Assembly (NCBI RefSeq): GCF_010731595.1 | Contig: NZ_AP022582.1 | Coordinates: forward strand, 1,612,001 to 1,676,000 | DNA from: Mycobacterium seoulense | GTDB taxonomy: Bacteria > Actinomycetota > Actinomycetes > Mycobacteriales > Mycobacteriaceae | DNA: 64,000 nt | Direction: 5' to 3' | Shown: positions 47,134-58,599 of the stretch, one piece after another | How the letters are laid out: every line of letters begins with the position of its first letter | How positions within the stretch are numbered: position 1 is the first letter of the stretch | Notes under the pieces: generated by a model | Seen by the model: the letters and a program-made list of their open reading frames with translations, nothing else | What the model was told of the DNA's origin: nothing | The model's database searches: none | Position numbers and translations under genes: made by a program

Positions 47134-48306
47134 ATGGCGAAGCTCAGGTTTGGATACTTCATCGCCCCGTTCCACCGGGCGGGCACGAACCCGACGCTCG
47201 CATTGCAGCGCGACCTCCAGTTCATCGAGCACCTCGACACCCTCGGCTTCGACGAAGTGTGGTTGGGCGAACACCACTCCGCCGGCAGCGAGATCATCAG
47301 CTCGCCGGAGATCTTCATCGCCGCCGCGGCCGAACGCGCCAAGCGGATTCGCTTTGGCACCGGGGTCATTTCGCTCTCCTATCACAACCCGCTCTGGGTC
47401 GCCGACCGCCTGATGCTGCTCGATCACCTGACCCATGGCCGCATCATCGGCGGTGTGGGGCCGGGTTCGCTGCCCAGCGACTCGTCCATGATCGGACTCA
47501 CCCCCACGGACACACGTGAGCTGCTCGAAACGAATCTCGACATCGTCGTCCGGCTCCTGGCGGGGGAGACGGTGAGCGCCAAGACGGCCACGCATCAGTT
47601 GTTCGACGCCAAGCTGCAGCTTGCCCCGTACTCGGACGGCGGGATCCCCCTGTCGGTCGCCGCGGTCGCATCGCCGACTGGTGCGCGGCTGGCGGGCAAG
47701 CATGGCATCGGCCTGCTGTCGATCGGGGCGACGTTGACCGTCGAGGGTTTCAACGCGCTCTCCTATCACTGGGGCATCGTCGAGGAGCGGGCGGCGACCT
47801 TCGGCACACAGGTTGACCGCAAGCACTGGAGCCTGGTCGGCCTGTTCCACCTCGCCGAGACCGAAAAGCAGGCCCGAGAAGAGGTCAAGTTCGGCATCGA
47901 GCCATGGTTCCGCTATTTCCAGAAAGTCGCCGCCTTCCCGCAGATGACGATGCCGGGCGAGCAGCTCGACGAGATGATCGACGTCATCAACGACAACGGG
48001 GCGGGCGTGATCGGCACGCCCGAGCGGGCGCGGGAACAGGTGCAGCGGCTGTGGGATCAGTCCGGCGGGTTCGGCTGCATGCTGCAGATGGGCCACGAGT
48101 GGGCCAACCCGGCCGCCACCAGACGGTCCGCCGAATTGTTTGCCGCCGAAGTGATGCCGCATTTCCAGGGTCAAGCGCGGCCGACGCTGGATGCCGCCGC
48201 GCGGGCCGGGCAGGCAAGGGAGAGCCTCGCGCAATCTCAGCTGGACGCCGTGGCGCACATGACGAAGAAGTACGAAGCGGAGAAACGTCCTACTAACACC
48301 GTTTGA
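47134..48306 (+). CDS. LLM-class flavin-dependent oxidoreductase with a swapped C-terminus
   Basis: A 390-residue luciferase-like monooxygenase. FGYFIAPFHRAGTNPT at the start, GFDEVWLGEHHSAGSEIISS near residue 45, and IGGVGPGSLPSDSSM near residue 108 are typical. It uses reduced FMN or F420 and oxygen or a hydride acceptor. The last native codons are replaced after TKKY (residue 380) by EAEKRPTNTV from the integrated element; the displaced original end, TKKYQDEVDSK then stop, is found 10.3 kb to the right. The protein stays near its native length of about 387, so it is probably still active. Confidence 0.9.
   Translation: MAKLRFGYFIAPFHRAGTNPTLALQRDLQFIEHLDTLGFDEVWLGEHHSAGSEIISSPEIFIAAAAERAKRIRFGTGVISLSYHNPLWVADRLMLLDHLTHGRIIGGVGPGSLPSDSSMIGLTPTDTRELLETNLDIVVRLLAGETVSAKTATHQLFDAKLQLAPYSDGGIPLSVAAVASPTGARLAGKHGIGLLSIGATLTVEGFNALSYHWGIVEERAATFGTQVDRKHWSLVGLFHLAETEKQAREEVKFGIEPWFRYFQKVAAFPQMTMPGEQLDEMIDVINDNGAGVIGTPERAREQVQRLWDQSGGFGCMLQMGHEWANPAATRRSAELFAAEVMPHFQGQARPTLDAAARAGQARESLAQSQLDAVAHMTKKYEAEKRPTNTV
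48262..48272 (+). repeat. Left attachment core (attL), ACGAAGAAGTA
   Basis: Eleven bases identical to those at 58564-58574, in the same direction and in the reading frame of the oxidoreductase (T-K-K-Y). The base three positions before also matches. It marks the left boundary of the integrated element. Confidence 0.8.
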
Positions 48307-48394
48307 CCTGGTGTTTTAAGGAGCGTCCTGCGTAAATATCCTTACGCAACGCAGACCCGCAGCAAACAAACTTAGCCCTCTGACAAGTCAGAGG
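48295..48394. repeat. Cluster of inverted repeats at the left end of the element
   Basis: Three inverted repeats follow the left core: AACACC/GGTGTT around the oxidoreductase stop codon (48295-48315), TGCGTAA-ATATCC-TTACGCA (48329-48348) and CCTCTGAC-AA-GTCAGAGG (48377-48394). They may be recombinase or regulator sites; the last is 14 bp before the first element gene and suits an operator. Confidence 0.55.
48303..48316 (+). repeat. Arm-type repeat near the left end
   Basis: TTGACCTGGTGTTT, 31 bp inside the left core, recurs as TTGACCGGTGTTT at 58507-58519, 45 bp inside the right core, in the same orientation. Short repeats on both arms of an attachment site are typical integrase arm-binding sites. 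Confidence 0.5.
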
Positions 48395-48408
48395 AGTGCA
48401 TCGTAACC

Positions 48409-48906
48409 GTGTCCACCGACAACACCGCGACCTGCTGGCGTGACATCGCCGACCAGCTCACACCCCAACAGGTCGCACGATTCGACCGCCAAGAAACCAT
48501 GGCGATGCGATCACTCGAGAAATGGCGGCAACCCGAATACGGCGGGTGGGCGCCAGAATCCGCCGAGGACATCGCCCGCGGGTTTCTGGCCGAGGCCCGC
48601 TGGGAGGCTGCGCAGAACCTCACCGACACGATGATCAACATCCCCGTCCCGGCCGGCGTGCGCGAGGTCGAGCATTGGGAAGCCGACGACACGGGCACCT
48701 GGACCCGCCAGGTCCACGGCACAGAACGCACCCTCGCAGGGTTTGACGCCGCGATCTACCTCGAAGGCATCCAGCACCGGGACAGCACCGTCACCTGGTC
48801 GCTGTACGCCCACGTCGAGGACTCGGAGGCGATGACTTCCGGGCAGGTGCGCCAACTAGCCGCGCATTTAGTCGAGGCGGCCGACGAGTTGGACCGGCTG
48901 CAATGA
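48409..48906 (+). CDS. Element-borne hypothetical protein
   Basis: A 165-residue soluble acidic protein with a GTG start. Trp-rich segments (WRDIADQLTPQQVARFDRQE, HWEADDTGTWTRQVHGTERT) and a helical C-terminus (RQLAAHLVEAADELDRL) are visible; similar small proteins occur next to integrases in mycobacterial prophages. Its stop overlaps the start of the split integrase gene (ATGA), so it belonged to an integrase operon. Confidence 0.7.
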   Translation: MSTDNTATCWRDIADQLTPQQVARFDRQETMAMRSLEKWRQPEYGGWAPESAEDIARGFLAEARWEAAQNLTDTMINIPVPAGVREVEHWEADDTGTWTRQVHGTERTLAGFDAAIYLEGIQHRDSTVTWSLYAHVEDSEAMTSGQVRQLAAHLVEAADELDRLQ

Positions 48907-49358
48907 GCGACACGGATGGGGTGAGTTCGGCTCAGGGTAAGGATGTCGCTCAGGGCGACGCCCTTCGCAGGTCAGATACTCCGCACTTGGCCGGGGGTAA
49001 CGACGGTGGGGCGCGCCAGACGCACCCCGACTTGCAGGCGTTGAAGAATGCGCAGTCCCGCGCCCGCCGTGTCGGCCTGTTCCTGTCCAAACAAGGCACC
49101 ACATACACACTTCTCCGGGGAACCGGAGAAGTGATCGCCACCGGGAACCTACCATCCGTGCTGGCCCACATCCCCGACCGCCGCCGATACGCCCACCAAA
49201 GCCAACCCCGACCGCAATGGCAACAGATCATCGACGACTACCTGCTCACCCTCGCCGCCGCCGGCAAACCGAACACGACCATCACCTTGCGGCGCATCCA
49301 ACTATCGAAGATGGGCCGCGAAATCGGCGGCACACCAACCGAACTGACCGCCGACGAG
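48903..49358 (+). pseudogene. Tyrosine integrase, N-terminal half (split by inversion)
   Basis: 152 codons. The second part, WQQIIDDYLLTLAAAG then RRIQLSKMGREIG, is the SAM-like core-binding domain of phage integrases. It ends GTPTELTADE where the normal continuation LVAWFGNHDDWAIETRRSY is found on the opposite strand at 51771 downward. After the break the frame runs 14 codons into antisense of the ATPase gene and stops at 49400. The first ~90 residues form an extra domain with TTYTLLRGTGEVIATG, an unusual fusion. No catalytic residues are left in this half. Confidence 0.85.
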
Positions 49359-49681
49359 GATTCGGTTTCGCCGATGACGACGTTTTCGCGGCCGTCGTAG
49401 AGGAACCGGATGCCGTCTGATCGGGCGAGTCCGACTGTTTGTTGGGGTGGTTGGACTTCGCCGCGTAGGTAGGGGCCGAGGTCGACGGGTTCCCAGGTGG
49501 TCGGTTCGTGTTCGGTGTCGGAGGATTCTTGTGATTTGTGGCCGTCCCCTGCGCCGATGTGCTCATCGTCGGGTGGGGGTTCGTCGGGTCCGGGGTCATC
49601 GGCAAGGTCATGTCTCGCAATTTGTACAACTCTGCTTTTAATTACAACTCTGGAATAAAAGGGGACGATTACTACGCGCAT
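49359..49681 (-). pseudogene. RecA/AAA-type ATPase, N-terminal part (split by inversion)
   Basis: 107 codons from an ATG at 49681, reading the acidic linker then WEPVDLGPYLRGEV, DGIRFLYDGRENVVIGETES, where the first half of a Walker A motif stops at the break. The remaining GKTWFALGCVAREL begins at 51774 on the other strand. The N-terminal ~20 codons overlap an AT-rich control region with two ACAACTCTG copies, so the true start may be further inside. Confidence 0.8.
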
Positions 49682-49996
49682 GAGTTTTCCGCGCTTGACC
49701 TCGAACTCGACCGTGCAGAGCGCCGCGAAATCGTGGTGTCGCTGCGTGAGTCGGGGATGAGCCTGCGCGCCATCGCAGCAGCGACAGGAGTCAGCCATCA
49801 GACCGCCATCCGCGACTTAGCAGGTGGTCCGCAATCACCAGAAAATGGACCACCTGATGGAGTGATTGATGTTGACGCGGAGGATGATTCCGGCGACTGG
49901 TACTGCGAAGGCGGCGGCCACGACGCCAACGCAGCAACCCCCTCTGAACAAGTTGGCAGGAATTCCGGTAATTTGCCTGATTTTTTGGGGCGGTAG
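49610..49996 (+). CDS. Helix-turn-helix protein of the element
   Basis: About 128 residues from an ATG at 49610 (a weak AAGG upstream). The core LDRAERREIVVSLRESGMSLRAIAAATGVSHQTAIRDLAGG is a sigma-like or resolvase-like helix-turn-helix that recurs in actinobacterial phages. The C-terminal part is acidic and Cys-poor. The first ~25 codons lie in the AT-rich divergent control region, so translation may start later. Before the inversion it would have diverged from the ATPase gene, as a regulator does. Confidence 0.62.
   Translation: MSRNLYNSAFNYNSGIKGDDYYAHEFSALDLELDRAERREIVVSLRESGMSLRAIAAATGVSHQTAIRDLAGGPQSPENGPPDGVIDVDAEDDSGDWYCEGGGHDANAATPSEQVGRNSGNLPDFLGR
49627..49663. promoter_or_regulatory. 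Divergent control region with ACAACTCTG direct repeats
   Basis: Two ACAACTCTG copies about 20 bp apart in an AT-rich stretch (GCTTTTAATT between them) lie between the start of the ATPase gene fragment and the helix-turn-helix gene. Likely binding sites for the element's regulator. Confidence 0.5.
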
Positions 49997-50003
49997 CGAG
50001 ACG

Positions 50004-50351
50004 ATGCGGGGCATGTCCCGCATCCGACACCTCATGCGGCGACTGGCTCTTAGTGAGGCGGCGCGCGGCCGGCTGGCGCGTGTGGTCGCCGAAGTGTTGG
50101 TTGCGGTCATCGTGGTCTGCGTGGTGATCGTCATCTTGGCCTTGTTGAAACAGGGTCCGTCTAACACGCGGCCCACCTATCCGAGCACTCACTTCAGCAC
50201 TACGACCAGCCGGCCCGTGGTCTATTACAAGAACTGCGCTGAGGCTCACGCTGATGGTCGTTGGAACATTCCCGAGGGGGATCCGGCTTACCGGCCGGGG
50301 TTGGATAAGGACCACAACGGTGTGGCGTGTGAGTCCCGCGAGCCGAACTGA
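50004..50351 (+). CDS. Membrane-anchored excalibur-domain protein
   Basis: A 115-residue protein. After a basic head (SRIRHLMRRL) comes one membrane helix (VVAEVLVAVIVVCVVIVILALL), then a Thr/Ser linker and a C-terminal excalibur calcium-binding domain: YKNCAEAHADGRWNIPEGDP ending DKDHNGVACE. The domain carries the EF-hand-like DxDxNGxxCE loop. The cell-surface side is expected. It starts 7 bp after the helix-turn-helix gene. Excalibur proteins occur as morons in mycobacterial prophages. Confidence 0.8.
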   Translation: MRGMSRIRHLMRRLALSEAARGRLARVVAEVLVAVIVVCVVIVILALLKQGPSNTRPTYPSTHFSTTTSRPVVYYKNCAEAHADGRWNIPEGDPAYRPGLDKDHNGVACESREPN

Positions 50352-50384
50352 GCAACCCCGGCCCCTTGGGGGCGGGTGTGTCGA

Positions 50385-50876
50385 TTATTCGTGCCAGCGG
50401 ACCCTCCGGCCGGTGCGTGCCGCCCAGGCTTCGACGGCGGCGCGGGGGTCGCCGTCGTGCTGCACCCATCGGACCCTGTAGCCGTTGCGGGCGGCCCACT
50501 GCTCCACGTCGTCCATTTCGCCGCGGTAGTGGCGGGCGGCGGCGGCCACTGACTCCGGGGTGATGTGGCCCGCGGCGGCGGTGACGTCCTCGATCGCGCC
50601 GCCGGACCGGGCCCCTGGGGGCTGAACCGCTGACTCTAGCGCCCCGATCAGGCCGCTTTTGCCGGGTGGGGCAACTTGGAATCCTGTGCCGTGTCCTGCT
50701 GGCGGTGTGATGCCGCCGATCGGGGTTGTGCCGGCTCCTGACACTGTCGGCCCGAAGGATGCCTTCGGGAGGGGTACGGGTGCCGGGCGGGCCGGCTGGT
50801 GCTGCTGGCGGGGGCGGGGTGTGCGCGGCGAGGGCCGTTCAGGTTCGGGGGGTTGGGGTTCATCCGGGCCGGTCAT
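50385..50876 (-). CDS. Proline-rich element protein with repeated C-terminal motif
   Basis: A 163-residue protein with a Pro/Gln/Arg-rich N-terminal ~50 residues and a C-terminus with the unit VEQWAARNGYRVRWVQH followed by VEAWAARTGRRVRW, two copies of about 20 residues. The ATG at 50876 is preferred; a TTG at 50897 is possible. It converges with the excalibur gene. Function unknown; the repeats may pair as a small binding domain. Confidence 0.6.
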   Translation of the reverse strand: MTGPDEPQPPEPERPSPRTPRPRQQHQPARPAPVPLPKASFGPTVSGAGTTPIGGITPPAGHGTGFQVAPPGKSGLIGALESAVQPPGARSGGAIEDVTAAAGHITPESVAAAARHYRGEMDDVEQWAARNGYRVRWVQHDGDPRAAVEAWAARTGRRVRWHE

Positions 50877-51044
50877 GGTCTCATTATGACTTGGCAACTG
50901 CGCAAAATTACGCAGTTGACGAACCTGTGCACGGCAACTGCACGTCGCCGTTCGGTCTGCGGCCGGCGAACACGAACAAGATCACACGTGTTGACATCAG
51001 AAGATCGCCGGCAGACTTGAGCGGTTGCCCCAACCAGCGTGAAA

Positions 51045-51062
51045 AGTGGCGAAAATTCGTCA
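51045..51062. terminator. Hairpin with T-tracts after the integrase half
   Basis: GTGGCGAA and TTCGTCAC (one mismatch) form a stem followed by TTTTTTCTTTTTTT on the plus strand and by TTTT on the minus strand. It lies 17 bp after the stop of the integrase half, so it works for that gene and perhaps in both directions. A canonical U-tract terminator is unusual for mycobacterial DNA and typical of phage DNA. Confidence 0.72.
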
Positions 51063-51078
51063 CTTTTTTCTTTTTTTC

Positions 51079-51771
51079 TCAGATCGCGTCGTCGAGGGCG
51101 GCTGTCATCGCCGCCCGCAGCTCCTCATCGTCGACAGCGGTGTAACGCTGCGTGGTGCCGAGGTTTTCGTGCCCCAACAGGATCTGCACGGCCCGCAGGT
51201 TGCGGGTGCCTCGATAGGCGCGGCTAGCGAAACGATGTCTGAGCTGGTGCATGGTCCAGCCGCGGGGCAGGACCTCGCGCACCAGGTAGCCGACCCAGGG
51301 GGCGGTCAGATGGTCGGTGCCCTTGTTGTTGGGGAACAGCCAGCCGCCCGCCGCGCGGATTGTCGGGTCTTGCAGACGATCTCGGATCGCATCAGCCAGC
51401 GAGTCGGACAGCGGGACGACGCGCTGCTTGTTGCCCTTGCCGTGCACCAGCAGCTGCGTCCCGTCGACGCCGTCGATGAGGTCGCGGGCGTGGACTTGGG
51501 CGACCTCAGCCCGCCTTAGGCCGCATTCGGCGGCCAGGCGTAGCACGAGTTTCAGGCGTGGATCGGCGGCCAGCAGCGCTTCCCGCCACACCCGATCCGG
51601 GGTCGGGCGGGGCGCCCCGCGCTGTTCCCGCACGGAGGGCAGCTCGTCAGCCAAATGCACGGGCATCCGTTTCGTGCGGTAGGCCCACCGCAGAAAACCT
51701 CGGATTGTGGCCCGATACGAGCGGCGGGTTTCGATCGCCCAGTCGTCGTGGTTGCCGAACCAGGCCACCAG
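51079..51771 (-). pseudogene. Tyrosine integrase, catalytic half (split by inversion)
   Basis: 231 codons including the stop. All active-site parts remain: CGLRRAEVAQVHARDL (Arg I), the beta-hairpin lysine in HGKGNKQRVVPL, HQLRHRFAS (His-x-x-Arg), LLGHENLGTTQRYTAV (His and nucleophile Tyr). The first codons LVAWFGN continue the ADE end of the other half at 49358. Translation could begin at the GTG at 51768, giving an N-terminally truncated protein without the core-binding domain, so it is probably inactive. Confidence 0.85.
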
Positions 51772-51773
51772 CT

Positions 51774-52686
51774 AGGCAAAACCTGGTTCGCCCTCGGCTG
51801 CGTCGCCCGCGAACTCCGCATGGGCCACCACGTCCTCTACATCCACTACGAGGAAGCCGACGCCGCCTCCACCATCGAACGACTACGACTCCTCGGCGTA
51901 CCGGACACAGACATCGAAACCGGGCTGCGGTTCGTCGCCCCCAACCGGCCACCCCATACCGAATGGCTGTGCGCGCTCCTCCAGCCCACCCCCACGCTCG
52001 TCGTCCACGACGGCATCAACGAAGCGTTTACACTGCTCGGCGCCGAGATCAAAGACGTCGACGGGGCGTCGGAATTCCGGCGCCGCCTCATCCGCCCCTG
52101 CACCAAAGCCGGCGCCACCACACTCGGCTGCGACCACATGCCCATGATGCGCGACCACGCCCGCCGCGACGCCTACGGCAGCGTGCACAAGGGCAACGCG
52201 CTCGACGGTGCCCGCATTCTGCTGGAGAACATCGAACCGTTCGGCCGGAACATGCGCGGGGCGTCCTCGGTGTACGTCACCAAAGACCGGCCCGGCCGGC
52301 TCCGCGCGCACGGCAACCCCACCAAGACACCCGGAAAAACATTCATGGGTGTGCTCGTCGTCGACGACATGACCGGCGGGCCCGACTTCCTGCTCGAGCT
52401 GTACGCCCCGAAAGACGAGCAGGACGACGCCCCCGCGGGGACCGTCACGCTCCCGGAGCTGGGCGACATTGTGCACCAGGTGATCGCGGCGCTACCCAAT
52501 CACACGGTGGACTCGCTGCGGAAGCTATATGCGGCGATGCGGCAGGCAGATCAACCGTTCCGCGAAAACTCGATCAAGATGGCCGTCGATGACCTGGTGA
52601 TTGCCGGCCGTCTGAATGAAGTGCGCGGGAAGCGCGGAGCTACCGGCTATCAGGCCGTTACGACTGCTGCCGGGGAGAATTTCTAA
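51774..52686 (+). pseudogene. RecA/AAA-type ATPase, C-terminal part (split by inversion)
   Basis: 304 codons. It opens in the Walker A motif (GKTWFALGCVAREL), followed by VLYIHYEEADA, the Walker B strand TLVVHDGIN, and a C-terminal winged-helix-like part ALPNHTVDSLRKLYAAMRQ ... LNEVRGKRGATGY. This is the layout of phage RepA-type helicase loaders or DnaB-like ATPases (AAA_25). An open frame upstream of the junction belongs to antisense of the integrase half. Without its N-terminus, ATP binding would be lost. Confidence 0.83.
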
Positions 52687-52781
52687 TGAGAGTTTGCTAC
52701 CGACTTCGGCTCGGACCGCTGCCCGTGGTTTGCGCCTATCGGCGCAAGCCTACCACGGCAGCAGATCCATCCGTTTGCACG

Positions 52782-52820
52782 ACTGCTGCCCGGCAGCAGT
52801 GGGCAGCAGTGGGCAGCAGT
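52782..52820. repeat. GGCAGCAGTG tandem repeats with an inverted copy
   Basis: ACTGCTGCC and GGCAGCAGT face each other across one base, and the unit then recurs twice more at 10-bp spacing. An isolated GACTGCTGCC also occurs at 52664-52673 inside the ATPase end. The repeats lie between the ATPase and the small-protein array. Iterons near a replication ATPase suggest an origin; an operator is the alternative. Confidence 0.5.
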
Positions 52821-52855
52821 CAGACCTGCGGGAAAAAATTGTTAGAAGACACGCC

Positions 52856-53077
52856 ATGACGGTCGGCATCCCTACTCAATGCGTCGGCTGCGGCGCCCCC
52901 CTGCACGCGCACAACCTCACCAAGTTGTGCGCCGAATGCAAGCTGATTGCCCGTAATCGGCGCCTGTCCGGCCAGCCCGCAGACACCGCCAACCCGGTCA
53001 CCCACACCGAGGCGGTCGCCAACGTCACCACGGTGCTCGGCGGCCGCATCATCCACGAAGGAGAACAACTCACATGA
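52856..53077 (+). CDS. Zinc-ribbon-like small protein 1
   Basis: A 73-residue protein with CVGCGAPLHAHNLTKLCAEC, two CxxC pairs 16 residues apart, as in a zinc ribbon. The rest is polar. The stop overlaps the next gene's ATG (ATGA). It leads an array of tiny genes that run in one direction with coupled starts. Confidence 0.7.
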   Translation: MTVGIPTQCVGCGAPLHAHNLTKLCAECKLIARNRRLSGQPADTANPVTHTEAVANVTTVLGGRIIHEGEQLT

Positions 53078-53262
53078 CTGTCCCCGTCGCGGAGGTCATC
53101 GCCGAACGCCGCTACGGCGGCGTCCCCACCGTCCGCGTCCTATGCCCGCTGTGCGGACGCACCCATCTGCATCCGCAGCCCACCGACCCCCCCACACCCG
53201 TCGCCGCGCACTGCGGCGGCGGCCTCTACACCCTCGCAACCGAAAGGAAACCCCAACCATGA
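53074..53262 (+). CDS. Zinc-ribbon-like small protein 2
   Basis: A 62-residue protein. VRVLCPLCGRTHLHPQP plus AAHCGGGLYTL gives CxxC, a His pair and a late Cys, a plausible zinc site. The start overlaps the preceding stop, and its own stop overlaps the following ATG. Confidence 0.68.
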   Translation: MTVPVAEVIAERRYGGVPTVRVLCPLCGRTHLHPQPTDPPTPVAAHCGGGLYTLATERKPQP

Positions 53263-53477
53263 CCGACACCACCCGCGCCGCCATTGAGCCGGTAGCCGTC
53301 GACGCCTTCGGCGACCCGGTCGTCGTCACCACCAACGCAGAACGGCTCATCCAATTACGCACCGGAGCCGCCACATCAGCCACCTACCTCAACCCCGGTG
53401 ACGCGCTGGCGTTGGCCGACGCCCTACGCACGGCCGCGCATGGGGTGCTCGCCGCACGCGAGGCGGCGAACCGATGA
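53259..53477 (+). CDS. Small acidic protein of the array
   Basis: A 72-residue protein without cysteines: a beta-type N-terminal half (VDAFGDPVVVTTNAERLIQL) and a C-terminal helix (LALADALRTAAHGVLAAREA). AAGGAAA precedes the ATG, which overlaps the previous stop. No family recognised. Confidence 0.68.
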   Translation: MTDTTRAAIEPVAVDAFGDPVVVTTNAERLIQLRTGAATSATYLNPGDALALADALRTAAHGVLAAREAANR

Positions 53478-53620
53478 TCGACCTTCCGCCGCATTGCCCC
53501 ACCTGCAACACCCCCACCGACACCCCGCGTGACCGCTGCAGCTGCGGCCGCGCCCACTGCTACGCCTGCGGCGAACTGCTGGAATGCGGCCGATTCACTG
53601 TTGCCCATAGGCCTATCTGA
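53474..53620 (+). CDS. 48-residue cysteine-rich protein
   Basis: The open frame encodes eight cysteines in 48 residues, paired as CPTC, CSC, CYAC and a final C: about two zinc sites (PHCPTCNTPTD, RCSCGRAHCYACGELLEC). The start overlaps the preceding stop (ATGA). It is too short for usual gene calls. An operator-like repeat covers its stop codon. Confidence 0.62.
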   Translation: MIDLPPHCPTCNTPTDTPRDRCSCGRAHCYACGELLECGRFTVAHRPI

Positions 53621-53643
53621 AACGTTTACATTGTTAACGTTTC
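53619..53643. promoter_or_regulatory. Inverted repeat GAAACGTT-N9-AACGTTTC
   Basis: Two exact 8-bp arms with a 9-bp spacer TACATTGTT (which could supply a -35/-10-like TTTACA...). It lies in the only real gap of the array, 27 bp before the next gene, so a second promoter with its operator is likely here. Confidence 0.55.
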
Positions 53644-53669
53644 CCCTCCACTGAAAAGGAAACCACCAC

Positions 53670-53879
53670 ATGACCGAACAGCCTCGCCGTTTGTGCTGCA
53701 CCTGCTTTCGGGCCTACGTGCCACCAGGGATGTACAAATGCGGCGACTGCGATCCTGGCCGCGCCGTCCCCAACCGCGCGGCCAAATGCCCCACCCCGAA
53801 CCCGTTAGACCTGACTGGTGACCTCGCCGGGCTCAACCTGGCCGACCTCGGTCTCACCGATCCGGAGATGCCCCAATGA
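53670..53879 (+). CDS. Small cysteine protein of the array
   Basis: A 69-residue protein with LCCTCFRAYVPPGMYKCGDC, four to five cysteines like a rubredoxin-type knuckle pair, then a polar C-terminus. AAAAGGAAA is the ribosome site. The stop overlaps the next ATG. Confidence 0.68.
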   Translation: MTEQPRRLCCTCFRAYVPPGMYKCGDCDPGRAVPNRAAKCPTPNPLDLTGDLAGLNLADLGLTDPEMPQ

Positions 53880-54142
53880 CCGCCCCGGTTCACTGCCGAG
53901 AATGCCGGCGCCGCATCGGGAAACGCGGCCACCTCTGGGCGTTCGGCGGCCACGCGCTGGGCCTATGCCAACACTGCACGACCACCAGCTGGTCGCGGCT
54001 ACACGCCAAATACTTCCCCCACTGCCGCCAATCCCATACCCCGGCCGACCACAACGCCATGCTGGTCACCCCCGCCGGATACACCTATTTGCAAGCAAAT
54101 CCAGCCACAATTAACCCAACGAGTAAGGAGACATCGTCGTGA
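53876..54142 (+). CDS. Zinc-finger-like small protein of the array
   Basis: An 88-residue protein: VHCRECRRRIGKRGHLWAFGG, then GLCQHCTTTSW and FPHCRQSH, giving two CxxC pairs and later His/Cys. Basic and probably nucleic-acid binding. Overlaps the next GTG by 4 bp. Confidence 0.66.
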   Translation: MTAPVHCRECRRRIGKRGHLWAFGGHALGLCQHCTTTSWSRLHAKYFPHCRQSHTPADHNAMLVTPAGYTYLQANPATINPTSKETSS

Positions 54143-54570
54143 ACGAGTTGATCCCGCTGTCAGTGTTGGCGCTCGACACCGGCACCACCGCAGCCGAACT
54201 AGAGCGCCGCCACGCCGACAGAACGCTCCCCGACCACCTCGGCCGGGTTTGCGTAGACGCCGAGCTGGCGCGCGAACTGATCGCCGCCGAGCGGGCCCGT
54301 GTCGAGGGCCATGCACAGTACCGGCGGCAAGCCCGCCAAACCCAGCGCGAGAAGGTCGCCGCCACCCACCCACGCCGCCGCGTCAAGGCGATCACCGAAC
54401 ACCAGGCGCAGTTACGCGAGAAGGGCCTCATCGATGCCGACATGTCCGCGTTCGCGGTGATGGGCTCCGGTGACACCCAGGCCAGCTTGGACGGCTACGC
54501 CAGCAGGCGCATGGACGCCTGGCTGCGCGGTGAATCCACTGGCGGCCGCTACACCATCGGAAAGGACTAA
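54139..54570 (+). CDS. Helical DNA-binding-like element protein
   Basis: A 143-residue protein with a GTG start and AAGGAG upstream. The N-terminal part looks like an excisionase-type winged helix (PLSVLALDTGTTAAELERRH, then DELAREL); the middle is a charged helix (ARQTQREKVAATHPRRRVKA). Similar proteins serve as directionality factors or regulators in actinobacterial elements. Excisionase function is inference only. Confidence 0.6.
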   Translation: MNELIPLSVLALDTGTTAAELERRHADRTLPDHLGRVCVDAELARELIAAERARVEGHAQYRRQARQTQREKVAATHPRRRVKAITEHQAQLREKGLIDADMSAFAVMGSGDTQASLDGYASRRMDAWLRGESTGGRYTIGKD

Positions 54571-54572
54571 CC

Positions 54573-54911
54573 ATGGAATCGTTTAGCGTTCACGCCCCGC
54601 CACCACCTCCCGGCGTCCTCGCCGCCATCGAAGATGACGAGCGGCACGCCCGGCAAGCCCTGGTGGAACGGGAGCTGCGCGCCATGCGGGCGCGCACCGA
54701 GACCCGCTCCTACGAGCGCGTCCACCCCACCCCTGCCATATACGAGCAGGCGCGCAGGTTGCTCGAGGAACACAACGGCGACTTCGAAGCCGCCCTAGCA
54801 GCTTGGATGCGTGAAAACGGTTGGGGCAACGGCAACGCCCACACCGACGAACGTGGCGGCAAACCCCCGATCGAGCACGGCCCACTGGGTCGCGTCCTGG
54901 GTGTGAGATGA
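54573..54911 (+). CDS. Element-borne hypothetical protein
   Basis: A 112-residue protein with a proline run (PPPPPG) at the N-terminus, a long charged helix (ALVERELRAMRARTETRS) and a Gly/Asn C-terminus. AAAGGA precedes the ATG. Its stop overlaps a following ATG. No family recognised. Confidence 0.62.
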   Translation: MESFSVHAPPPPPGVLAAIEDDERHARQALVERELRAMRARTETRSYERVHPTPAIYEQARRLLEEHNGDFEAALAAWMRENGWGNGNAHTDERGGKPPIEHGPLGRVLGVR

Positions 54912-55015
54912 GTTCGCCGCGCTGGCGTCGGGGGTCTGTCGTCATGGAGATTTCCAGGTCTTCTAAAAGTAACGCCGTGTTACCTTTTATATCGGGCAAA
55001 TTATTCACCGTGTGA
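54908..55015 (+). CDS. Truncated or chance small frame at the junction to AT-rich DNA
   Basis: A 35-codon frame coupled by ATGA to the previous gene. The first 12 residues (SSPRWRRGSVVM) have the array's codon use; the rest is AT-rich and ends in a hairpin. It looks like the start of a gene cut off by the AT-rich segment. Low confidence as a functional gene. Confidence 0.35.
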   Translation: MSSPRWRRGSVVMEISRSSKSNAVLPFISGKLFTV

Positions 55016-55400
55016 ATAATTATTTCGGCGCTTCAGATTTTTTATTGCTATAACTATACAATGCTGACCTTGCCGGTCTTGACCTGCAGAGATGCGAAAA
55101 AATTAGCCTTTCAGGTGTCACAAATGTGACAGCTGAAGATGATCTAGGCGCCGAATCCACAACTTCTGCGATGCTCGCCCATGCATTTAATTCCATTATT
55201 GACATTGCAATGTAAGTGGGCAGCATGCGCGTTTTTAAGAATGAACTCGCTGTTGACCGGTTGCATTTAAAGAATGGCGAGGAATTCCTAGCTACATTAA
55301 ATGCTAAATCAAATCGCAAAGCAGATCGAGACGCGCACTTAATTGCAAGAGGACTCTGGTAATTAAAATTATGATGACGCCGCTCAACGAATTAGCCTGC
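54945..55400. other. AT-rich segment of different origin
   Basis: About 450 bp of much lower GC than the rest. It contains a perfect AT-rich hairpin AATTATTCAC-CGT-GTGAATAATT (54999-55021), the palindrome TGTCACA-AA-TGTGACA (55116-55131) and short frames in A/T-rich codons. It separates the plus-strand array from the minus-strand primase module and looks like a joint or transferred patch. No transposase or terminal repeats were seen. Confidence 0.65.
55225..55362 (+). CDS. 45-residue protein in AT-rich DNA
   Basis: The frame runs from ATG (or a GTG nine bases earlier) for 45 codons: a charged helical peptide, VDRLHLKNGEEFLATLNAKS then NRKADRDAHLIARGLW. It has the AT-rich codons of its surroundings. 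A short frame of about 29 codons ends just before it, so two tiny coupled genes are possible. Coding status is unproven. Confidence 0.4.
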   Translation: MRVFKNELAVDRLHLKNGEEFLATLNAKSNRKADRDAHLIARGLW

Positions 55401-56573
55401 CTATGCAAGCTTCTGACCTGCGATTCTTAGCCAGCCACCACCGGTAGACCGGCAAGTTGGCCATTCTGGTTCGATGGTGATTCGGGCTTGCCGGTCGGCG
55501 CGGATCTTGTCCCAGCTGGTGCCCACGTCGTCGTCGTTGCGTTCGTCGAGCCGGCCGGCGAGGTCGGCCCGGGTGCGTACCGCCCAGCGGGTCTGCTCAA
55601 GGGTCAGGCCGGCGTCGGCGCAGGCGGCGACCACGCGGTAGGTGTCGGCTGATCGGTCCGGTGGGGTGGTGACCGTGGCCAGCGCGGTGGCCACCGCCCA
55701 GTGGCTGTCGAGGTCGAACGGCTCGCCGGGTTGTCCCGCTGCGGGCGGGTGCCCGGCGTGCCCGTTCGTGCCGGGCACGAGTGTGCTCGCGCGCCAGGGT
55801 TCTTGGCCGGGTTCGGGCAGGGTGACGCCGAGCTGGAAGGCCAGCGCGTGTTTGTCGTGGCGTGTACCGCTCGGTGTGACGAGCCAGCGCACCGGGGTGG
55901 GTTCACCGCCGGAGAGGGTGGCTTTCTGGCTGTATGTGCCGGGCGGGCGCAGTACGTCGTTGTCGCTGATTTTCGAGTCGGCGCAGCCGAGGTGGTCCCC
56001 GAGGGCGCGGGACAGGATGTCGTATTCGGTGACGGTGAGCGGTTCGGTCGTCTCGGCATAGACGTGGCCGTTGCCGGGTGTGCCGCTGCTGATGGCCCAT
56101 CCGCCGATGGCGGTGACCTTGTCGGGGTTGAGGTGGCCGTGGTCGGCGTCGGCGTGGATGCGGGTGCGTTCCACGGCGGCGCCCTTGGCGCGGGTGCGGC
56201 CGCGCATCACCGAGGTGCACACGTACACGTCGGCGCCGGGCGCGGCCCGCAGCATGTGGTTCACGGCTTGATCGGCGTGCGCCGGGTAGTCGTAGGACGT
56301 TTGTTTCCAGTCCCGGTGCTTGTATTTCCCGTTGTCGCTCAGATAGGGGTCACGGCCCACGGCGATATGCAGGTAGCCGGGTGTGTCACCGAATAGGGCG
56401 GCGAGGAATTCCCGTAACTGGCGCTCGCGCGCCGCGTCGTCGTCGTGTTCGTGTCGCCCGTCGCCGTTAGACTGAGGGCGGCTACTGGTCTTAATGGGGG
56501 CTGGTGTGCTGGTGGTGTCGGGTCCCTCGGGAGTGGTGTCCCGGGGGCCGACTTCGTTAGGCGGTTCGCGCAT
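55401..56573 (-). CDS. AEP-type primase/replication protein
   Basis: A 390-residue protein. RIHADADHGHL is the hhDhD catalytic motif of archaeo-eukaryotic primases; SSGTPGNGHVYAE the second motif with its conserved His; LRPPGTYSQKATL the third. A disordered acidic N-terminus precedes. Such PrimPol proteins start replication of plasmids and phage satellites. The start overlaps the upstream gene by 17 bp. With the integrase it forms the minus-strand replication/integration module. Confidence 0.8.
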   Translation of the reverse strand: MREPPNEVGPRDTTPEGPDTTSTPAPIKTSSRPQSNGDGRHEHDDDAARERQLREFLAALFGDTPGYLHIAVGRDPYLSDNGKYKHRDWKQTSYDYPAHADQAVNHMLRAAPGADVYVCTSVMRGRTRAKGAAVERTRIHADADHGHLNPDKVTAIGGWAISSGTPGNGHVYAETTEPLTVTEYDILSRALGDHLGCADSKISDNDVLRPPGTYSQKATLSGGEPTPVRWLVTPSGTRHDKHALAFQLGVTLPEPGQEPWRASTLVPGTNGHAGHPPAAGQPGEPFDLDSHWAVATALATVTTPPDRSADTYRVVAACADAGLTLEQTRWAVRTRADLAGRLDERNDDDVGTSWDKIRADRQARITIEPEWPTCRSTGGGWLRIAGQKLA

Positions 56574-56889
56574 CGCCGGTACCGCCGTCGAGTTGTTCGG
56601 CTTGGCGTGCCGCCTTGCGCTGTTGGGCGAGTTGTTCGCGTTGTTCTCTGCGTTCGCGGCGGGCTTTGGCTGACCGGAACGCCATCCGCTGCATATGTGC
56701 GCGGTACGCGCTGTCGGCCATCCTGGCCCGCAGGTCTTCGGGTAGTCCGGGATCGGTGGCGTTGTAGAACTTTTCCCAGTTGCCGCGGGCGGCGTGGGCG
56801 GCGCGCTGCGAGCGGTTGGCGGTGTTGGCCCAGCCGGTCAGGCCGGCGATGCGGGCGCGGAGTTTACGTTCGGCTGCGGTGAGCGGCAT
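56557..56889 (-). CDS. Small basic helical protein before the primase
   Basis: A 110-residue protein rich in Arg, Ala and Gln: LTAAERKLRARIAGLTGWAN, then a long coiled-coil-like end RRERREQREQLAQQRKAARQ. A GGAG lies 10 bases before the ATG. It resembles small proteins placed next to Rep genes in actinobacterial integrative elements. Probably DNA-associated. Confidence 0.65.
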   Translation of the reverse strand: MPLTAAERKLRARIAGLTGWANTANRSQRAAHAARGNWEKFYNATDPGLPEDLRARMADSAYRAHMQRMAFRSAKARRERREQREQLAQQRKAARQAEQLDGGTGDARTA

Positions 56890-57022
56890 CTCGTCTCCAT
56901 GACGGGATTGCCGACCCGTGAGGATCAGCACCTAATGCCGCGACACCCGCTGGTGTCGGGTCCGGGTCTCAACCGTTCTCGCCCGGCTCCAAGTCAGCCG
57001 ACGTAGGACTGACAACTACATA

Positions 57023-57559
57023 CTACGACAGGCGGGCCAAGATTTCGGCGTACAACGCGGGTTCCGCGATTCGCCGCTGCTCGGGGGAAAGGGTGTGAAG
57101 CCGCGCGATGCGCCCCCCAAGGGTCTCATCCGATGCGATCCGGTGGATTTTCGCAAGGTCAATGTGGTGGTGTTCCTTACTGACAAGTGCCTCAAAGATG
57201 ATGACGAGTGTTATCGCCCGGACATCCACGCCCTGAGCGAGGGGCACAACACCGGGCAGCGGCTCTGACCGGCTGAGCAGTACCGGATAACCAAGGCTTT
57301 TGTCGTAGCGGATCTTCTCGGTCACCCGCTCCCAGTGCAGGCGGGTGTCGGGGTCCGCTTCGTCGTCGGCAACCAGGATGAAGGTGTGCTTTTTACGGCC
57401 GCGGCCGGTGGTGACCGTGATGAGGTAGTCCGGGGCGCGTTGCCCGCCGAGGCCCTCACCCCAGCGGGTTCTGGTCTTCGCGGTAGTTCGCTGCCGCCGC
57501 TCGTTGAGCGCTTCGTTAATTCCGAATTCTGAATTAGCCGCTTCATCGTGGTCGTTCAC
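57023..57559 (-). CDS. Element-borne hypothetical protein coupled to the integrase
   Basis: A 178-residue protein with a GTG start overlapping the integrase stop (GTGA). A basic N-terminus (NERRQRTTAKTRTRWGEG) is followed by a compact domain, HTFILVADDEADPDTRLHW ... YPVLLSRSEPLPGVVPLAQG. No family recognised. Coupling to the integrase suggests a role in integration or its control. Confidence 0.66.
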   Translation of the reverse strand: MNDHDEAANSEFGINEALNERRQRTTAKTRTRWGEGLGGQRAPDYLITVTTGRGRKKHTFILVADDEADPDTRLHWERVTEKIRYDKSLGYPVLLSRSEPLPGVVPLAQGVDVRAITLVIIFEALVSKEHHHIDLAKIHRIASDETLGGRIARLHTLSPEQRRIAEPALYAEILARLS

Positions 57560-58458
57560 AGGTCGCCGAGCCGCAGTCGTTTGGCTTCGTCGGCGGCCCG
57601 CTCGGATGCGGTGGCCGCGGTGTAACGGTCGAGCATCTGGCGTTGCTTCCACCCGGCCATCGTCATCAGCCCGCCCTCCGAGCCGCCTGCGGCCAGCCAG
57701 CGCGACGCTGCGGTGTGCCTCAGCAGGTGCGGGTGAAAAGTGTCGAGGCCGACCAGGGCGGCGCGGCGCCGCAACGCCCGATACAGCGATGTGTACCCGA
57801 AAGACCCGGCCGCCCGGACAGGCAGCCACAGCGAGGGCCGCTCGGCGAGTTTGTGGGAGCGCCGCATCCGTATGTAGCGGTCGAGCACCGTGGCGGTTTG
57901 TGGCCCGAATGGCACCGGCCGGTCCCGGCCGCCCTTGCCGGAGCGGATGACCGCGCGCCCGTGCAGGGTGTCGACGTCGGCCACGGCCAGGGAGGCGCAC
58001 TCGCCGGCCCTCATCCCGGTTTCGGCCATCAGCCGGCAGATGGCCTCGTCGCGGCGATCGGCGAAGCCGGGGCCCTGACAGGCTTTGATCAGGTCGCGCA
58101 GCTCGGCCTCGGTGAGCGGGTCGGTGATCTTGACGGCCAGCTTCGGCGGGGACATGCCCAGCAGCCGGTCCGCCTCGATCTCGCCCTCGGCGGTCAGCCA
58201 ATGCGAGAACCGGCGCAACGCGAGATAGCGGGCCCGCACCGTGGCCGCCTGGGCGCCGTCGTCGAATAACGCCGCGAGGAAGCCCTGCACCGTGGGCTTG
58301 CTCAACTCCGGGGCGGTACCGGTGCGCTCACACCAGCGCAGGAACTGACGGACGCCCTCGCGGTACTGGGCGAGGGTGTGGCGCGACTTGCGCTCCGAGC
58401 GCAGCGCGACCTCCCAGGACGGCAACAACTCAGCTAATAAATTCGGAGTTTGGGGCAC
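57556..58458 (-). CDS. Intact tyrosine recombinase (integrase)
   Basis: A 300-residue XerC/D-like recombinase with the full active site: TGMRAGECASLAVADV (Arg I), SGKGGRDRPVPF (Lys), HLLRHTAASRW (His-x-x-Arg), MAGWKQRQMLDRYTAATA (Trp/His position and nucleophile Tyr). The N-terminal SAM-like domain (LRSERKSRHTLAQYREGVRQ) is complete. It starts 106 bp from the right core and reads away from it, so it is the likely enzyme that placed the element in the oxidoreductase gene. Confidence 0.92.
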   Translation of the reverse strand: MPQTPNLLAELLPSWEVALRSERKSRHTLAQYREGVRQFLRWCERTGTAPELSKPTVQGFLAALFDDGAQAATVRARYLALRRFSHWLTAEGEIEADRLLGMSPPKLAVKITDPLTEAELRDLIKACQGPGFADRRDEAICRLMAETGMRAGECASLAVADVDTLHGRAVIRSGKGGRDRPVPFGPQTATVLDRYIRMRRSHKLAERPSLWLPVRAAGSFGYTSLYRALRRRAALVGLDTFHPHLLRHTAASRWLAAGGSEGGLMTMAGWKQRQMLDRYTAATASERAADEAKRLRLGDL

Positions 58459-58506
58459 AAGCAGTTATCTTACTTGCGGGCCACATACAAGACCAGTATT
58501 CTGCGG

Positions 58507-58519
58507 TTGACCGGTGTTT
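58507..58519 (+). repeat. Arm-type repeat near the right end
   Basis: TTGACCGGTGTTT, the partner of TTGACCTGGTGTTT at the left end (48303-48316), same orientation. It lies in the noncoding strip between the integrase and the right core, where arm sites are expected. Confidence 0.5.
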
Positions 58520-58563
58520 CTGCTGGTAAACCTGCTAAACATGGATGAGGGCTAAGTCAGATA

Positions 58564-58599
58564 ACGAAGAAGTATCAGGACGAGGTCGACTCGAAGTAG
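58564..58599 (+). repeat. Right attachment core (attR) with the displaced native end of the oxidoreductase
   Basis: The core ACGAAGAAGTA (58564-58574) is followed in frame by codons that read on to a TAG: TKKYQDEVDSK then stop. These are the original last codons of the LLM oxidoreductase, now cut off. The match of frame, sequence and sense orientation shows the insertion point at base level. Confidence 0.85.

What the first reader, a model, noticed from the sequence alone, without database searches (positions are those of the whole stretch)
49359..51773. A 2.4-kb inversion cuts an integrase and an ATPase into opposite-strand halves
Integrase ADE and LVAWFGN, and ATPase GETES and GKTWF, are found on opposite strands at the two ends. 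Re-inverting the segment gives intact frames of 382 and 411 residues with a complete Walker A motif, and only 2 bp (AG/CT) are surplus. It could be an accidental inactivation, or a reversible switch that couples the two genes.
Basis: seen in the sequence. Interest (0 to 1): 0.88.

Follow-up and report, generated by a model that had tools for sequence, protein, structure and literature searches.

The report
Inversion breaking two mobile-element genes
In one mycobacterial genome a 2.4-kb piece of a small integrated mobile element is flipped, cutting an integrase gene and a replication-type ATPase gene in two; it looks like a one-off accident rather than a switch.

Summary
Two genes are each split into opposite-strand halves at window 49358/49359 and 51771-51775. 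Relatives show the halves belong together: in 19 of 21 distinct ATPase loci read, the N-half relative runs into the C-half relative in one open frame (2 could not be scored); in 18 of 18 integrase loci read the frame runs through the junction. No relative scored has the split. DNA similarity to relatives stops at the proposed breakpoints.

The segment lies in a 10.3-kb integrated element (about 48262-58574) at the 3' end of a flavin-monooxygenase gene; related genomes show the empty site.

The switch reading is not supported: no terminal inverted repeats above chance, arrangement unique, two bases at the right junction fit neither gene. Best explanation: two double-strand breaks rejoined in flipped order by end joining; the genome encodes Ku. 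Against a purely random accident, a 9-bp hairpin is centred on the right junction, found at only 0.14% of positions (looked for after the fact). An assembly or library chimera cannot be excluded without reads. The halves were not rejoined (genus-mate of a listed germ). Interest is low.

The parts
48262..58574 (.). Integrated element, about 10.3 kb, bounded by an 11-bp att core (48262-48272 and 58564-58574)
   Evidence: Both flanks lie side by side, overlapping by 17-18 bp, in 3 of 4 relative loci compared (L061, L063, L064; not L062)
48409..48906 (+). Small gene of unknown function directly upstream of the integrase gene
   Evidence: ORF; relatives lie upstream of the integrase in 3 of 15 loci L087-L101: L087, L093, L095
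48903..49358 (+). N half of the integrase gene (152 codons)
   Evidence: N-half matches directly upstream of C-half matches in 17 of 18 integrase loci; 33-45% to parts of two viral integrases
49359..51773 (.). Inverted segment
   Evidence: Breaks in similarity at both ends; halves contiguous in relatives
49359..49681 (-). N half of the ATPase gene, up to the first part of the Walker A motif (start codon uncertain)
   Evidence: tblastn match directly upstream of the C half in 19 of 19 scored loci
49610..49996 (+). Helix-turn-helix ORF inside the segment; its start overlaps the 5' part of the ATPase frame
   Evidence: HTH_38 and HTH_23, both below the curated cut-off
49866..50351 (+). ORF with an Excalibur calcium-binding domain, inside the segment
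   Evidence: PF05901, E 1.8e-12
50385..50897 (-). ORF of unknown function inside the segment
   Evidence: ORF; no Pfam or PHROG match
51079..51771 (-). C half (catalytic domain) of the integrase gene
   Evidence: PF00589, E 1.2e-25; 58% to phage Typha integrase
51756..51790 (.). Hairpin with 9-bp arms (51756-51764 and 51782-51790) centred on the right junction
51775..52686 (+). C half of the ATPase gene, from the second part of the Walker A motif
   Evidence: Relatives in 54 of 396 genomes of the genus, own included
57556..58458 (-). Second, unbroken tyrosine integrase next to the right end
   Evidence: PF00589, E 1.3e-26, and SAM-like N-terminal domain

Best explanation
A 2.4-kb segment of an integrated, prophage- or plasmid-like mycobacterial element was inverted once, probably recently, by joining of double-strand-break ends without homology, with one break in the integrase gene and one in the P-loop of a replication-type ATPase gene. 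The ATPase has its nucleotide-binding motif cut in two, and the integrase catalytic domain is separated from its N-terminal part, so both are inferred to be dead. A second, unbroken integrase at the right end could still move the element. Shown: the split, the intact relatives, the absence of terminal inverted repeats, the presence of Ku. Inferred: the joining mechanism, recency and loss of function.
For: Halves contiguous in 19 of 21 ATPase loci (2 not scorable) and 18 of 18 integrase loci; similarity stops at the breakpoints; no end repeats above chance; two bases at the right junction fit neither gene, as end joining with fill-in can leave (PMC5869714, passages); Ku in the genome, E 5.9e-54; the halves have no internal stops, a weak sign of recency.
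Against: A hairpin with 9-bp arms is centred on the right junction; such a near-symmetric hairpin occurs at 85 of 60000 random positions, and two random cuts share a 9-mer at the same downstream offset in 146 of 200000 pairs. Found after the fact, but it hints that the breaks were guided by sequence or structure. LigD was not searched for. No reads and no second isolate were available.
Confidence: 0.75

Rival explanations
1. Assembly error or library chimera: the strain's DNA has the genes whole and the flip exists only in the assembly.
For: Single assembly, no reads; none of the scored relatives has the flip; a hairpin sits at one junction.
Against: The longest inverted word shared within 60 bp of the two ends is 7 bp, the commonest random value, so an assembler had no repeat there to confuse it; the genome is one contig, 99.98% complete.
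Confidence: 0.16
2. Reversible switch that turns integrase and ATPase on and off together.
For: Both genes are broken and would be restored together; the halves have no internal stops; two tyrosine integrases lie in the element.
Against: In-register inverted identity of the two ends is 0.31-0.37 against random means of 0.35-0.43; none of the scored relatives has the flip; leftover bases at one junction do not fit conservative recombination.
Confidence: 0.05
3. The pieces are separate genes by design (split proteins) and not halves of broken genes.
For: Pieces can be read as ORFs.
Against: One continuous frame in 19 of 21 ATPase loci (2 not scorable) and 18 of 18 integrase loci; the ATPase split falls inside the Walker A motif.
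Confidence: 0.02

Closest known systems
Mycobacteriophage tyrosine integrases (Typha, Angel)
   Same: C half 58.1% (Typha) and 55.6% (Angel) identical; Phage_integrase domain.
   Different: Split here, in a 10.3-kb element. In Angel a repressor gene overlaps the start of the integrase gene; here that place is taken by a small gene without a Pfam or PHROG match.
Invertons, intragenic invertons and gene-altering programmed inversions
   Same: A DNA segment with both ends inside genes is flipped.
   Different: Invertons are described as flanked by 10-40 nt inverted repeats and flipped by an invertase (PMC11892184, passages seen). No such repeats here. The papers on intragenic and gene-altering inversions were seen only as entries in that paper's reference list.
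End-joining (NHEJ) repair scars of actinobacteria
   Same: Ku present; junctions without end homology; a small addition. Scars in Streptomyces include fill-in of 1-4 nt and are likened to those of M. tuberculosis (PMC5869714, passages seen).
   Different: Two breaks joined in flipped order; the hairpin at the junction is not part of that picture. The passages shown did not mention inversions (0 occurrences).

Membership tests
Inverton (invertase-driven phase switch) | Inverted repeats at both ends of the segment | tested here: not met
   In-register identity at or below random means, longest shared inverted word 7 bp
Inverton (invertase-driven phase switch) | Both orientations found in a population | not testable with these tools
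   No reads and no second isolate
Inverton (invertase-driven phase switch) | Recombinase encoded nearby | tested here: inconclusive
   Two tyrosine integrases in the element, one broken; no serine invertase search was made
NHEJ scar | Host encodes Ku | tested here: met
   PF02735, E 5.9e-54, one match
NHEJ scar | Host encodes LigD | not tested
   No search made
NHEJ scar | Junctions without homology and with small additions or losses | tested here: met
   No shared word above chance between the ends; two unassigned bases. The hairpin is unexplained
Tyrosine integrase | Phage_integrase catalytic domain | tested here: met
   PF00589, 90.7 bits against a cut-off of 27.1, in the C half
Tyrosine integrase | N-terminal DNA-binding part in the same protein | tested here: not met
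   It lies on the other strand, 1.7 kb from the nearest end of the C half
P-loop ATPase of the AAA_25 or phage primase-helicase kind | Profile match above the curated cut-off | tested here: not met
   Intact relative: AAA_25 19.3 bits against 27; phrog_695 E 2.7e-07, no curated cut-off

The most novel reading that the evidence does not exclude
The flip was guided by sequence: a nuclease or recombinase that reads a short word lying 7 bases inside each break (each gene read in its own direction) cut both genes and the ends were rejoined flipped, perhaps repeatedly, so that integration and replication of the element are disabled together and the element stays dormant in part of the population, without the inverted repeats that known invertible switches use.
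Probability: 0.06. Interest if true: 0.75.

Novelty: new member of a known kind. Interest (0 to 1): 0.22.

Why it matters
It is a clear, two-sided example of how a mobile element can lose two key genes in one event in a mycobacterium, and a caution against reading every flipped segment as a switch. If it were sequence-guided or recurrent, it would need a mechanism without terminal inverted repeats, which would be surprising; only the hairpin at one junction points that way.

Tried and rejected
Terminal inverted repeats at the breakpoints: none above chance. Hairpin at the right junction: 9-bp arms occur around 87 of 5000 random positions if the arms may lie anywhere within 30 bp, but only 85 of 60000 if they must be near-symmetric about the cut, as here. 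Close relatives of the ATPase C half in viral contigs: no pattern match. Plasmids: 19 of the 20 records listed match only the flavin-monooxygenase gene, one is a 1% match, 3 of 23 were not listed. A tRNA-Thr called at 55438-55524 was not supported by Rfam at gathering threshold. Literature: searches for inversions or end joining with prophage integrases listed 3 and 1 papers, none on this by title and start of abstract; no claim of absence from print is made.

The more distant ATPase matches (about 41% identity or less) were not read. The integrase junction was read in the 15 non-own loci supplied (52 of 396 genomes match, own included) and 3 phage or viral loci (L038-L040). L036/L050, a 53% integrase whose match starts at residue 7, fell outside the filter and was not read.

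Full report
What is there. The window is part of a 5,531,300-base single-contig genome. Integrase matches in phages are mostly to mycobacteriophages and Gordonia phages.

The split. The integrase N half is at 48903-49358 (+) and its C half at 51079-51771 (-). The ATPase N half is on the minus strand, ending at 49359-49361, and its C half is at 51775-52686 (+). The ATPase C half has relatives in 54 of 396 genomes of the genus, own included. I read the junction in 21 distinct relative loci: in 19 the N-half relative runs into the C-half relative in one open frame, and 2 could not be scored. The integrase C half has relatives at E <= 1e-30 in 52 of 396 genomes, own included. In 18 of 18 distinct integrase loci read the frame runs through the junction; the N half itself was detected by tblastn at E <= 0.01 in 17 of them (not L091), and L098 has a stop 32 codons upstream. 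Among the loci read, only the window has the split. The nearest integrase relative, in G370, is 67% identical over the C half.

Breakpoints. DNA matches to the ATPase C half begin at window 51774 or 51775 in 9 of 9 other genomes listed with one; the G370 integrase match ends at 51772; a G199 match to the ATPase N half begins at 49359 on the opposite strand, with one base between it and the C-half match in that genome. Two bases at 51772-51773 are left that neither gene accounts for.

Is it a switch? Invertons are described as flanked by 10-40 nt inverted repeats bound by an invertase (PMC11892184, passages seen). Here the in-register inverted identity of the two ends (half-widths 10 to 50) is 0.31-0.37 against random means of 0.35-0.43, and the longest inverted word shared within 60 bp of each end is 7 bp, the commonest random value. 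The flipped state was not seen in the relatives read. Leftover bases do not fit conservative site-specific recombination (established knowledge). So the switch reading is not supported, though reads of the culture were not available.

How it probably arose. The genome encodes a Ku-domain protein; LigD was not searched for. End-joining scars in Streptomyces include fill-in additions of 1-4 nt and are likened there to those of M. tuberculosis (PMC5869714, passages seen). Two breaks, one in each gene, joined in flipped order with a small fill-in, fit what is seen. This is inference. The halves have no internal stops, a weak sign of recency, since high-GC frames stay open easily. The lack of any repeat shared by the ends makes an ordinary assembly mis-join unlikely but does not exclude a chimeric molecule.

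A result against randomness. The right junction sits at the centre of a hairpin with 9-bp arms (51756-51764, 51782-51790). Put otherwise, the same 9-bp word lies 7 bases inside each break, each gene read in its own direction. A near-symmetric hairpin of this size is found at 85 of 60000 random positions of the window, and two random cuts share a 9-mer at the same offset in 146 of 200000 pairs. The word falls on a Trp-Phe codon pair present in both proteins, so shared coding is a plain explanation for the match itself; its placement is not explained. I noticed it after the fact, so the odds are weaker than they look, but it leaves room for a sequence-guided cut and is the basis of the novel case. 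The confidence in the plain accident was lowered for it.

Consequences (inferred). The ATPase P-loop motif is cut between its two halves. It is a replication-type protein by weak similarity only: for an intact relative, AAA_25 below cut-off and phrog_695. The integrase's catalytic domain remains as an ORF without its N-terminal part. The element has a second, unbroken tyrosine integrase next to its right end, so it is not necessarily locked in place.

The element. Its two flanks lie side by side in 3 of 4 relative loci compared (L061, L063, L064, overlapping by 17-18 bp; in L062 the right-flank match lies some 600 bp away); an 11-bp core is identical at window 48262 and 58564. The last codons of the flavin-monooxygenase gene at 47134-48306 now come from the element.

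Verdict. It is an ordinary kind of event, cleanly documented, with one unexplained detail at the right junction.

Noticed in passing
51756-51790: The right junction lies at the centre of a hairpin with 9-bp arms; the same word lies 7 bases inside each break when each gene is read in its own direction. Unexplained.
   Followed up: partly
48262-48272 and 58564-58574: Att core of a 10.3-kb element inserted at the 3' end of a flavin-monooxygenase gene, whose last codons are now supplied by the element.
   Followed up: yes
57556-58458: The element carries a second tyrosine integrase, unbroken, about 100 bp from the right end; which integrase made the insertion is unknown.
   Followed up: no
L089 1504-3002, L093 1504-3013: In two relatives the integrase is followed by a second tyrosine-recombinase-like match (31-33%), as if in tandem.
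   Followed up: no
55000-55499: Stretch of 45% GC in a 65% GC element, without a convincing gene.
   Followed up: partly
55438-55524: ARAGORN calls a tRNA-Thr over the end of a primase-like gene; Rfam gives no match at gathering threshold.
   Followed up: partly
L037 7429-8175: In a relative locus a prohead-protease-like gene lies near the ATPase, hinting at prophage or satellite kinship of such elements.
   Followed up: no
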